Source: Polytrichum commune (taxonomy: Eukaryota > Streptophyta > Polytrichopsida > Polytrichales > Polytrichaceae). From it: a stretch of DNA of 64,000 nucleotides. The stretch covers positions 56,568,758 to 56,632,757 of the forward strand of contig OX485805.1 of the NCBI GenBank assembly GCA_950295325.1, given 5' to 3'. The notes beneath the pieces were generated by a model. That model did not search any database and was not told the origin of the DNA. It saw only the letters and a program-made list of their open reading frames with translations. Position numbers and translations under genes: made by a program. Positions 5,370-8,535 of the stretch are shown one piece after another (the first letter of the stretch is position 1; every line of letters starts with the position of its first letter).

Positions 5370-8180
5370 ATGTCGGAAGAATCAATCAGAGATTGGGTGG
5401 ATCTGGACAATGATGCAATTCCAAGTGATCAAGTTCTTGCTCTATCCCTCAAGGAATGTGGAGTTCGTAAACATGGATCAGGGGACTACAACGTAGCTAT
5501 AGAAAATTTGAACGCAGCAAATGCGACCGATCCAGAGAATGCAGACATCCTATTTGAGAGAGGACAGCTGGATGCAATCATGAAAAAACATGACGAAGCC
5601 TTGACAGACATTGACAAAGCTCCTGCATTGAAACCATGTTGTGTTGATATTATTGGTTGGCGAGCCGAAACAAAGTTGGCGTCGCATGATTTTGGTGGTG
5701 CCTTGCAAGATTTGAACACTACTCACCAGCTTGACCCACATGCTCCATGGGTTCTGAGGCTCCAAGGTAAAACAAAATATTGCCAAGATAACATGGAGGG
5801 TGCAATACATGATCTGAACAGAGAAAACGTGTTTGAGCGACACGATGCTGATACCTTGAGGTTTCGTGGAACTGCCAAACCTTATCGAAGTGACTACAAA
5901 GCTGCTTTGAAGGATTTGGACAAGAGCATTGAATTGGAACCAAACAACCCCCGAAATCTTTGGCATCGGGCTCGGACCAAACTCTGGTTGGGAGATCATG
6001 AAGGTGCTTTACTTGACTTGAACAAAGCAAATGAGATTGAATCAAACGATGTGTCCATTCTTTTATTGCGTGCAGAAGTTAAGGAAATGTCAGGAGACCT
6101 TCAGGGTTGTTTACATGATGTAAATGCAGCTTATCAACTTGATCCTCAGAATAGCAATGCTCTTCGATCTCGATCATTTGTGAGATATTTGCTCAAAGAT
6201 CAACAAGGGAGTGTACATGACATGGACATGGCTTTTGAACTCGACCCAACCAATGCATGCATTCTCAGATCTCAAGCTCGTTTGAAACAAATGATGGGAG
6301 ATTCTGAACGTGCTCTTCGTGACCTAAACAAGGCATGTGAACTGAAACCAGATTATGTTACCGTTTTAATAGCCCGAGCAGCTGTAAAACACTCGATGAA
6401 TGACATTCAAGGCTCCTTACATGACCTGGACACGGCTCATGACCTTGAACCACAAAACATATTTATTCTCAAAGAAAGAGCTGCACTCAAAGTGATGACA
6501 AAGGACTACCCAGGAGCTTTGATAGACTTGGACAAAGCAAATCACCTTGATCCTGATGATTTCACTCGTGGGTTGCGAAAAGCTTTGAGGCAAAACTCAC
6601 AACAGTATTTGAACGCTATGGCAAGTCTATTGGCAAAGGTTCTTCACAACGCCACTGAGGATATATTTCTACGCGCGTACTGGAGGAGTATTATTGGTTC
6701 TTTTGAGGATTTGTCATCACAAATGTCTTTTCTTTTGGAATTGACAAAGATCATCCTTCAAATCTGGACATGCTACTCCATGATAGTGACTTTCACATTC
6801 AAATACTTGATGGGGTACGTGGAGAGGGGTGAATGGGACACATATTCAAATGGATCATGGGAGTTTCGTGCTTCATACGTGTGCATCGAGTTGCGGTTGG
6901 GAGCCTATCCATTTCAAAAGTTCAGAGACGTTGCACCTACATCTCACCATGACCGGACACAAATTAGTCAACCCACTCGTCATCTCTCAATTGCAAGATC
7001 CCAATCCTTCCAACAACAAAGTGGTGCTCCCTTCATGCGAAGATTGCCTCCTGGAGAGCGCACGAAATATTGTGGCGTTTATCGTCGCCTCCGCAAAGGA
7101 AAACAAGGTCCTCGAATGGCATACGAACCACGAGAATCGTCCAAAAGGGATAACCTTAAAAGGATTTACCTCGGAGAATATCCTACTCTTGAAGAAGCTG
7201 TTCTCGTCCGCGACGTGGCTCACTTTTGCCTTGGCAAGCAAGGCCCTTTCAATGTGGATCCTGTCTTATATGAATCTCTTGCTCCCATCCCGCAAGGGCA
7301 CTCTCAACAACAAATTCGCAAGCTTGTTCTAGAGCGTGTGAAGGAAGTTGATCACTTGGCTTTCAAGGAGAAGCTAGAAAGTCAAGAGCTTATGGCAGAG
7401 TTAGGTTTCCCACCTGCTTCACACCATTTGCATTCTAATCAGCAAGCGTCTCAAGATGATGACACACACTTGGGAGATGATGACATTGATGAGTTCAACT
7501 CTTATTTAGGTGTAGATTTCATCATTTTTGAACCTCTTCCAGTTCCACAAGATGGTGTTTCATCACAACATGAAATGACAAGAATTGCAGAAGTCCTCAT
7601 AAGCAACAACTTGTCAGCACCAAACGAGTCACCGGATCTTCATGCCACAACGGAGCGCATAGTTGTTAACCATCCAACATGCACAGATTCTCAAATGATC
7701 AATGATCAAAATCTTGTGCATTCGCATGAAAGTACTCGCGCATGCAATGATCGCCCACAGGATGTGGGCGTTGTTGGCAACACGCTTTGCAGCACCAATT
7801 TACCCTTTTTTGGTCCAACGTCATCTTCAAACCAATTGTGGACTCGACAAATTGTAATCAAAGCACCAGTTGGAACCACGCTTCTTCAACAGAATGGGAC
7901 CCAAGAGCTTGTTTATTCGCCCACCTTAATTCGCGCACTCTCAGCACTCCAGATTTTTGGGGTGAAAAATTGGACTATGGTGCCCCCTTTTGCTTTTACG
8001 GGTCAATCACTAGTTGTATGTCCAGACATGTCGAATGGTGGAGTGGGAACTCGAGAGTCATGGCAATATGTGTTTCGAATCCAAAAGTCTGGATCTCCGG
8101 AGGAGCTTGCCATATCAGATTCCATTCGCGCAGCATTGGATAAATTCCGCGACCTCACAGGTTGGATCCCATGGTACTAG
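5370..8180 (+). CDS. TPR-repeat protein with a hydrophobic segment and a divergent AP2/ERF-like domain
   Basis: One uninterrupted ORF of 936 codons. I chose the ATG at 5370 because it is the first ATG after the in-frame stop at 5292. Residues about 24-397 form eleven consecutive 34-residue TPR units, each with the G/A-x-A-L-x-D-L-x-K-A core and a DP or EP turn. Residues about 452-484 are strongly hydrophobic (centre IILQIWTCYSMIVTFTF) and could cross a membrane. Residues about 567-630 read as an AP2 domain: YCGVYRR, then IYLGEYPTLEEA, RDVAHFCLG and PFNVD, matching the YRGV..., WLGTF.TAEEA, RAYD.AA..G and NF positions of plant AP2. The WAEI-like strand is altered and the usual tryptophans are missing, so DNA binding is uncertain. 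An acidic stretch (DDDTHLGDDDIDEF) follows near residue 695, then an unrecognised C-terminus. TPRs bind proteins and AP2 domains usually bind DNA; joining them suggests a regulator, which is inference. I know of no standard AP2 class with TPRs. Confidence 0.8.
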   Translation: MSEESIRDWVDLDNDAIPSDQVLALSLKECGVRKHGSGDYNVAIENLNAANATDPENADILFERGQLDAIMKKHDEALTDIDKAPALKPCCVDIIGWRAETKLASHDFGGALQDLNTTHQLDPHAPWVLRLQGKTKYCQDNMEGAIHDLNRENVFERHDADTLRFRGTAKPYRSDYKAALKDLDKSIELEPNNPRNLWHRARTKLWLGDHEGALLDLNKANEIESNDVSILLLRAEVKEMSGDLQGCLHDVNAAYQLDPQNSNALRSRSFVRYLLKDQQGSVHDMDMAFELDPTNACILRSQARLKQMMGDSERALRDLNKACELKPDYVTVLIARAAVKHSMNDIQGSLHDLDTAHDLEPQNIFILKERAALKVMTKDYPGALIDLDKANHLDPDDFTRGLRKALRQNSQQYLNAMASLLAKVLHNATEDIFLRAYWRSIIGSFEDLSSQMSFLLELTKIILQIWTCYSMIVTFTFKYLMGYVERGEWDTYSNGSWEFRASYVCIELRLGAYPFQKFRDVAPTSHHDRTQISQPTRHLSIARSQSFQQQSGAPFMRRLPPGERTKYCGVYRRLRKGKQGPRMAYEPRESSKRDNLKRIYLGEYPTLEEAVLVRDVAHFCLGKQGPFNVDPVLYESLAPIPQGHSQQQIRKLVLERVKEVDHLAFKEKLESQELMAELGFPPASHHLHSNQQASQDDDTHLGDDDIDEFNSYLGVDFIIFEPLPVPQDGVSSQHEMTRIAEVLISNNLSAPNESPDLHATTERIVVNHPTCTDSQMINDQNLVHSHESTRACNDRPQDVGVVGNTLCSTNLPFFGPTSSSNQLWTRQIVIKAPVGTTLLQQNGTQELVYSPTLIRALSALQIFGVKNWTMVPPFAFTGQSLVVCPDMSNGGVGTRESWQYVFRIQKSGSPEELAISDSIRAALDKFRDLTGWIPWY

Positions 8181-8319
8181 CCTTGTGATTAGCACTCCTG
8201 AATTTGTTTATATACACGAGTTCAAATTTCTAACTAGAGCCCAGTATAGGTTTAAGAAGTTTGAAATAGATTTGTGACAAATGTGTTTTTGTGGCTTTGT
8301 TTTTCTTGTTTCAAAACAA

Positions 8320-8535
8320 TGTCCGGGGAGATTTATGGGCATCATCAGTCAGGATCTTAGTATTTCCAAGTCCAACCAGTTTCATGTTGTGAGCTTTTGT
8401 CTTTTAAAAGAATGTGAGGCATATTCCATAATTTTCCTCTAAAATGATCGGTAAATTTCCCCAAGTCTTGAACTTCAACTGGTTATTTCTCAAACTCAAC
8501 TGGTTCATTTGTAACTAGTAGTTGGTTCTCCCTGT
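8320..8535. repeat. Dispersed repeat, copy 1 (TGTCCGGGGAGAT family)
   Basis: Starts TGTCCGGGGAGATTTATGGG and ends near GGTTCTCCC. The same order of phrases (ATCTTAGTATTTCCAAGTCC, CTCTAAAATGATCGGT, TTGAACTTCAAC, CTCAAACTCAAC, GGTTCAT) recurs at 20225, 33472 and 45082. This copy lies 140 bp after the stop codon of the TPR-AP2 gene and may be in its 3' UTR. Confidence 0.75.

What the first reader, a model, noticed from the sequence alone, without database searches (positions are those of the whole stretch)
5370..8180. TPR array fused to a hydrophobic segment and a divergent AP2 domain in one intronless gene
Seen: one 936-codon frame carries eleven 34-residue TPRs, a strongly hydrophobic stretch at residues 452-484 and an AP2-like domain at about 567-630. 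Known: plant AP2/ERF, AP2 and RAV classes have no TPRs. Inferred: a protein-binding scaffold joined to a DNA-binding module, possibly held at a membrane and released, would be an unusual regulator. The AP2 strand region is altered, so the domain may instead be structural.
Basis: partly seen in the sequence, partly recalled or inferred. Interest (0 to 1): 0.8.

Follow-up and report, generated by a model that had tools for sequence, protein, structure and literature searches.

The report
Plant TPR–hydrophobic–AP2 fusion gene family
A plant gene joins a protein-docking TPR array to a hydrophobic, possibly membrane-seeking segment and a heavily altered AP2 DNA-binding domain; four intact copies show that the joint is a maintained gene structure, but what it does is untested.

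Summary
Window 5370-8180 (+) is one frame of 936 codons with eleven TPRs (residues ~24-397), a hydrophobic segment (~455-484) and an AP2-like domain (~564-640). Pfam alone scores AP2 below its cut-off. Homology is supported by a family profile whose five PDB hits under E 0.05 are all AP2 proteins (best WRI1, 8.9e-11), by profile-profile scores that 0 of 200 shuffles reach, and by a standalone relative (L016) that matches both this protein and ordinary AP2 domains of the genome. A profile of the four TPR copies alone is not significant. Four intact copies keep the joint (dN/dS ~0.36 at dS ~1 between the distant ones). The TPR array is closest to arrays of TPR-kinases on the same chromosome. Best reading: a divergent, possibly membrane-tethered AP2 regulator with an added docking array. 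Membrane insertion, DNA binding and expression are untested; no other plant genome could be searched.

The parts
5370..8180 (+). single open frame, 936 codons, TPR-hydrophobic-AP2-like protein
   Evidence: full-length paralogues
5439..6560 (+). eleven TPRs (residues ~24-397)
   Evidence: Pfam; 34-residue step (nine units by motif, two more by eye); AF2/Foldseek (residues ~181-390 confident)
6732..6821 (+). hydrophobic segment (residues ~455-484), candidate membrane helix
   Evidence: dN/dS 0.18 and 0.17 for residues 401-484 against L003 and L004
6822..6938 (+). conserved motif after the hydrophobic segment, 'YSNGSWEFRASYVCIELRLGAYPFQKFR' (residues ~485-523)
   Evidence: dN/dS 0.05 and 0.06; shared with TPR-less families
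7059..7289 (+). divergent AP2 domain (residues ~564-640)
   Evidence: Pfam sub-threshold; not significant with the four TPR copies alone
7455..7574 (+). acidic stretch with hydrophobic residues (residues 696-735; 12 D/E, 0 K/R), possible activation segment
   Evidence: role is inference only
7845..8177 (+). C-terminal domain (residues 826-936), found in the four TPR genes and one decayed copy
   Evidence: 5 matches at E <= 1; no Pfam match

Best explanation
The gene encodes a divergent AP2-family protein. Its core is a module of one hydrophobic helix, a conserved EFR/GAY/KFR motif that may form a second, membrane-facing arm, and an AP2 domain with a remodelled strand region. The module exists without TPRs in at least two other clustered gene families of the same genome. 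Here an eleven-TPR array related to that of local TPR-kinases stands in front, and a group-specific C-terminal domain behind. Most likely mode of action (inferred): the protein is held at a membrane by the hydrophobic segment, the TPR array docks a partner or chaperone, and the AP2 part, with the acidic segment after it, acts on transcription when the protein is released or redirected. If the hydrophobic segment is a true single span, TPR and AP2 would lie on opposite sides of the membrane and release by cleavage would be required; if it is a hairpin with the EFR arm, both lie on the same side. Shown: the anatomy, AP2 homology by profile, conservation of the joint. Inferred: membrane location, DNA binding, release, transcriptional role.
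For: Four intact copies with the same order of parts: window, L002 92%, L004 53%, L003 50% identical. Whole-gene dN/dS 0.364 (window/L003, dS 1.07), 0.373 (window/L004, dS 0.95) and 0.456 (window/L002, dS 0.08); lowest in the EFR motif (0.05, 0.06 against L003, L004), then the hydrophobic region (0.18, 0.17) and the AP2-like domain (0.18, 0.32). AP2 homology: hmmsearch of the six-sequence profile A3 against the PDB gives 7 hits at E up to 10; the five under 0.05 are all AP2 proteins (WRI1 8.9e-11; two AtERF1 entries 0.0018 and 0.002; ERF096 0.018; TEM1 0.019); hhalign against 16 AP2 domains of this genome scores 36.0, 43.5 and 54.6 for three sets, 0 of 200 column shuffles reaching the observed score in each; L016 alone matches the window gene (E 3.3e-7) and places that Pfam calls AP2 (5.8e-7, 3.8e-6, 5.5e-6 and weaker ones) in one search. 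Module reuse: 25 matches to the hydrophobic+EFR stretch at E up to 10; in the seven TPR-less members whose frames I read an AP2-like stretch follows, by eye, L013, L017 and L038 also in alignments. Decayed copies L005 and L015 match from residues ~447 and ~489 on (weak 22-bit pieces slightly further up in L015), with no TPR match at E 0.1 in the ~4.3 kb and ~2.1 kb held upstream. Some relatives have a clearer hydrophobic helix (2.04 L042, 2.17 L038, 2.19 L039, 2.21 L003). TPR array nearest to TPR-kinase frames.
Against: Pfam AP2 stays under its cut-off for the window, and none of the 7 other family members sent nor the 5 sent gives an AP2 hit; the genome-wide AP2 search lists 121 places, none of them this gene or its three paralogues. 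A profile of the four TPR copies alone has no significant AP2 hit in the PDB: best a designed helical barrel E 0.03, WRI1 0.38. phmmer of the window stretch and of L016 against the PDB is also not significant (AP2 at 0.33-1.1 and 0.048-0.064). AlphaFold2 on the single sequence fails for the AP2-like part (pLDDT 44, helices only), so the fold is not confirmed. In the close pair window/L002 the AP2-like part has 1 synonymous and 4 non-synonymous changes (ratio 1.2, too few to read). Hydropathy in this copy is only 1.39. DNA contacts recalled from AtERF1: four or five of eleven kept, by alignment. No expression, localisation or binding data.
Confidence: 0.4

Rival explanations
1. The AP2-derived domain has lost DNA binding and now serves as a protein-binding or structural part of a TPR scaffold; the gene is not a transcription factor.
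For: Strand region has extra residues (1 to 7, by alignment) and more than half of the recalled AtERF1 contact residues are changed; the EFR motif is more conserved than the AP2-like part; Pfam below cut-off.
Against: R573, E586, R588 and R598 are invariant in the four copies; residues 564-630 are basic (15 K/R, 8 D/E) and an acidic hydrophobic stretch follows at 696-735.
Confidence: 0.35
2. The hydrophobic segment is not a membrane span but a buried helix of a soluble helical bundle between the TPR array and the AP2 part.
For: Kyte-Doolittle 1.39 in the window, 1.43 in L004; the window stretch holds a glutamate and a lysine; AF2 draws long helices there at low confidence.
Against: The segment reaches 2.04-2.21 in L003, L038, L039 and L042 and is 1.39 or more in the 11 proteins.
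Confidence: 0.35
3. Lineage-specific family in an arms race (immune or stress sensors), with shuffling of TPR arrays between kinase and AP2 outputs.
For: Clustered copies; a gene-conversion-like identical tract between the window copy and L002; dN/dS 0.62-2.11 in 11 of 12 region comparisons among L013, L017 and L042, the twelfth undefined; TPR-kinase and TPR-AP2 genes within about 2 Mb on C3.
Against: The TPR-AP2 group is under purifying selection (0.36-0.46), and among L038-L040 the hydrophobic+EFR and AP2-like parts are too (0.11-0.64); few substitutions in several high-ratio comparisons; no function known.
Confidence: 0.2
4. Two neighbouring genes or a splicing or assembly artefact read as one frame.
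For: No transcript data held.
Against: One uninterrupted frame in four copies and coding constraint on both sides of the junction.
Confidence: 0.04

Closest known systems
Plant AP2/ERF transcription factors (PF00847; AtERF1, WRI1, RAV)
   Same: Homologous domain by profile tests; basic domain, acidic stretch further on
   Different: Strand region remodelled, more than half of the recalled contact residues changed, TPR array and hydrophobic segment attached; Pfam score below cut-off
Plant membrane-bound transcription factors (NAC NTL, bZIP28 type)
   Same: A candidate DNA-binding domain in one chain with a hydrophobic segment; an in-silico survey lists a few AP2 and ERF members (PMC5694209, passages seen: in Physcomitrella AP2 0, ERF 3)
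   Different: Segment lies in the middle of the chain, not near an end; TPR array; no release shown
TPR-kinase genes of the same genome (C3:54.7-54.9 Mb, L006-L009)
   Same: Closest TPR arrays in the genome searches, pieces 33-50% identical; long single frames
   Different: Kinase domain (seen in L007 by Pfam, L008 and L009 by near identity; L006 not read) in place of the hydrophobic-AP2 module
TPR-less hydrophobic-EFR-AP2-like families (C3:31.2-32.9 Mb and C7:14.4-14.6 Mb)
   Same: Same module order
   Different: No TPR in the seven read; other N-termini; coiled-coil or Q-rich C-termini; no match to the C-terminal domain of the TPR group

Membership tests
AP2/ERF domain (PF00847) | Curated HMM score over cut-off 33.3 | tested here: not met
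   14.1 bits whole protein, 18.7 bits isolated domain
AP2/ERF domain (PF00847) | Homology to known AP2 domains | tested here: met
   not significant with the four TPR copies alone
AP2/ERF domain (PF00847) | Three-strand sheet plus helix fold | tested here: inconclusive
   single-sequence AF2 pLDDT 44, no strands
AP2/ERF domain (PF00847) | DNA contact residues (positions recalled from AtERF1) | tested here: inconclusive
   four or five of eleven identical, depending on how strand 1 is aligned
AP2/ERF transcription factor | DNA binding and transcriptional activity | not testable with these tools
   needs bench data
Membrane-bound transcription factor | Transmembrane helix | tested here: inconclusive
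   Kyte-Doolittle 1.39 in window, 2.21 in L003, 2.17 and 2.19 in L038 and L039; no dedicated predictor run
Membrane-bound transcription factor | Regulated release to the nucleus | not testable with these tools
   needs bench data
TPR protein | Tandem 34-residue repeats over Pfam cut-offs and TPR fold | tested here: met

The most novel reading that the evidence does not exclude
A class of plant membrane-tethered regulators in which a hydrophobic hairpin plus AP2 domain is a reusable cassette that has been coupled to different input parts, among them a TPR array related to that of TPR-kinases, giving a one-protein route from docking at a membrane to gene control.
Probability: 0.25. Interest if true: 0.75.

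Novelty: new variant of a known kind. Interest (0 to 1): 0.5.

Why it matters
It points to AP2-derived gene families that a Pfam cut-off misses, and to a maintained fusion of a docking array, a candidate membrane segment and an AP2 domain in one chain. If membrane tethering and DNA binding are confirmed, it would be a route from protein docking at a membrane to gene control outside the known NAC and bZIP examples.

Tried and rejected
Pfam alone for AP2: inconclusive. AlphaFold2 of residues 522-697 from one sequence: pLDDT 44, not used for any fold claim. Relatives in viral and prokaryote collections: 1 and 28 stretches matched a pattern, none confirmed by tblastn; this says nothing on other plants. 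tRNA and Rfam scans of the window: none. Other long frames of the window: 10 of the 35 stop-to-stop frames of 115 aa or more (the gene itself is one of the 35) sent to Pfam; no match over a cut-off, one hit below it. Two-gene or artefact reading: rejected on four intact copies and dN/dS. Paper searches aimed at a TPR-AP2 fusion (listings only) showed no title on it; the library lacks most subscription journals. Species: the seven contigs C1-C7 (42-78 Mb; lengths) sum to about 406 of 407.8 Mb, which with recalled chromosome numbers suggests a Polytrichaceae moss; searches did not confirm it, so it is a guess.

Full report
Observation. The window lies at C3:56568758-56632757 of a 407.8 Mb assembly; that it is a plant is inferred from its many AP2 genes. 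One frame, 5370-8180 on the + strand, encodes 936 residues. It carries TPRs over several Pfam cut-offs, in a 34-residue step, with TPR-like helix pairs predicted for residues ~181-390 from the sequence alone. A hydrophobic stretch lies at 455-484 (Kyte-Doolittle 1.39) and an AP2-like stretch at ~564-640.

Is the AP2-like part AP2? Against: Pfam is below cut-off (14.1 bits in the protein, 18.7 bits and E 0.0021 for the isolated domain); none of the other family members sent gives an AP2 hit (7, 5); a genome-wide PF00847 search lists 121 places, not this gene or its paralogues; phmmer against the PDB gives AP2 proteins only at E 0.33-1.1 for the window and 0.048-0.064 for L016. For: (i) hhalign of three sets against 16 AP2 domains picked from the genome list: window, L002-L004 and L005 (score 36.0), the same with L016 (43.5), and nine sequences with L013, L015 and L017 added (54.6). 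In each, 0 of 200 column shuffles reach the score (highest 18.4, 20.0, 15.7), and reversed alignments score 12.9-17.9. L013 with L017 alone score 27.0 and L016 alone 46.5, without a shuffle control. (ii) The six-sequence profile A3 (window, L003, L004, L016, L013, L038) against the PDB: 7 hits at E up to 10, the five under 0.05 all AP2, best WRI1 8.9e-11 as a sum over domains, the better one 9.5e-5 on its own. With L016 and the four TPR copies, WRI1 1.9e-4. With the four TPR copies alone no AP2 hit is significant (WRI1 0.38; best, a designed barrel, 0.03). (iii) A single-sequence search with L016 gives 77 matches at E up to 10: the window gene at 3.3e-7 is next after L016 itself, and places that Pfam calls AP2 follow at 5.8e-7, 3.8e-6, 5.5e-6 and lower. 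I take homology to AP2 as well supported, resting on the relatives, and the fold as unconfirmed (AF2 failed on this part).

What the AP2 part keeps. With contact positions recalled from AtERF1, E586, R588 and R598 match in every alignment seen; one or two more arginines match depending on how strand 1 is placed (R572 and R575, R573 and R575), so four or five of eleven. The second tryptophan position is Y600, and E603 and R614 replace T and Y (residues printed). There are 1 to 7 extra residues in the strand region, by alignment. EPR, RIYLGEY and RDVAH are invariant in the four copies. Canonical GCC-box binding is therefore unlikely; other DNA binding is open.

Family. One search gives 35 matches, with four full-length genes: window, L002 (92%), L004 (53%), L003 (50%) by A1. 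Divergence from L003 and L004 is old (dS 1.07, 0.95) and constrained (0.364, 0.373), most in the EFR motif (0.05, 0.06), then the hydrophobic region (0.18, 0.17) and the AP2-like domain (0.18, 0.32); linkers 523-563 and 721-825 are loose (0.45-0.73). Against L002 the whole-gene ratio is 0.456; the AP2-like part there has 1 synonymous and 4 non-synonymous changes. The joint is thus a maintained gene structure.

The module. A 75-residue query over the hydrophobic segment and EFR motif gives 25 matches at E up to 10: 4 in the TPR group, 3 pieces in two decayed C5 copies, 7 at C3:31.18-32.94 Mb, 8 at C7:14.43-14.57 Mb, 1 at C5:0.459 Mb (broken, L041) and 2 weak. I read 4 of the 7 (L013, L014, L017, L042) and 3 of the 8 (L038, L039, L040). 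By eye an AP2-like stretch follows in these 7 of 7, in L014 across a frame break. They show no TPR and different N-termini, with coiled-coil or Q-rich C-termini. Hydropathy of the first segment there is 1.45-2.19; the arm after EFR is 1.08-1.46 in the C3:31 Mb members, 0.73 in the C7 members and 0.14 in the window, so a membrane hairpin is credible in some relatives and uncertain here. Decayed copies L005 and L015 match from residues ~447 and ~489 and show no TPR at E 0.1 in the ~4.3 and ~2.1 kb held upstream. The C-terminal domain 826-936 has 5 matches at E up to 1: the four TPR genes and L005.

Selection in the TPR-less families. Among L013, L017 and L042, 11 of 12 region comparisons have dN/dS 0.62-2.11 and one is undefined. 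Among L038-L040 the hydrophobic+EFR and AP2-like parts are at 0.11-0.64, N- and C-terminal parts at 0.29-1.12. Several rest on few changes.

TPR origin. The nearest arrays are those of four frames at C3:54.73-54.90 Mb (up to 174.6 bits from the window; pieces 33-50% identical); next is a 399-residue TPR frame on C6. Pfam confirms a kinase domain in L007, the one of the four sent; L008 and L009 are nearly identical to it; L006's kinase part was not read. Joining of a TPR array of that kind to the hydrophobic-AP2 module on the same chromosome is the simplest history; the direction is inferred.

Mechanism. A single membrane span between TPR and AP2 would put them on opposite sides, which forces either cleavage or a hairpin. 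The GA before the KFR end is invariant in the five sequences; a review names GA as required by animal and bacterial rhomboids (PMC9237531, passages seen), a lead only. An acidic hydrophobic stretch (696-735) could activate transcription. An in-silico survey already lists membrane-bound AP2 and ERF candidates (PMC5694209, passages seen), so a tethered AP2 protein would be a new variant, not a new kind.

Limits. No other plant genome, transcript or localisation data could be reached. Searches of viral and prokaryote contigs do not bear on this. Genome searches score only the best candidates, so counts are lower bounds.

Noticed in passing
window 7620-8519 against L002 (C3:56557487-56563291): About 900 bases are 100% identical between the two copies, while the rest of the gene is 91-97% identical in 150-base blocks: a gene-conversion-like tract.
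   Followed up: partly
L006-L009, C3:54.72-54.90 Mb: Four long single frames with TPR arrays, the closest to the window gene; three are 99-100% identical over the TPR part and carry a kinase domain (Pfam on L007 only).
   Followed up: partly
L013, L014, L017, L042 (C3:31-33 Mb) and L038-L040 (C7:14.4-14.6 Mb): Two TPR-less clustered families with the same hydrophobic-EFR-AP2-like module; no Pfam domain over cut-off in the members sent (L013 and L017 whole, L038 domain only).
   Followed up: partly
L016, C5:25659379-25659666: Standalone divergent AP2-like frame without a Pfam hit that links the window family to ordinary AP2 domains.
   Followed up: partly
L020:1106-4675 (C2:0.21 Mb): A 1190-residue frame with, by eye, two AP2-like stretches and a long C-terminal part of another kind; AP2 32.6 bits, just below the Pfam cut-off.
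   Followed up: no
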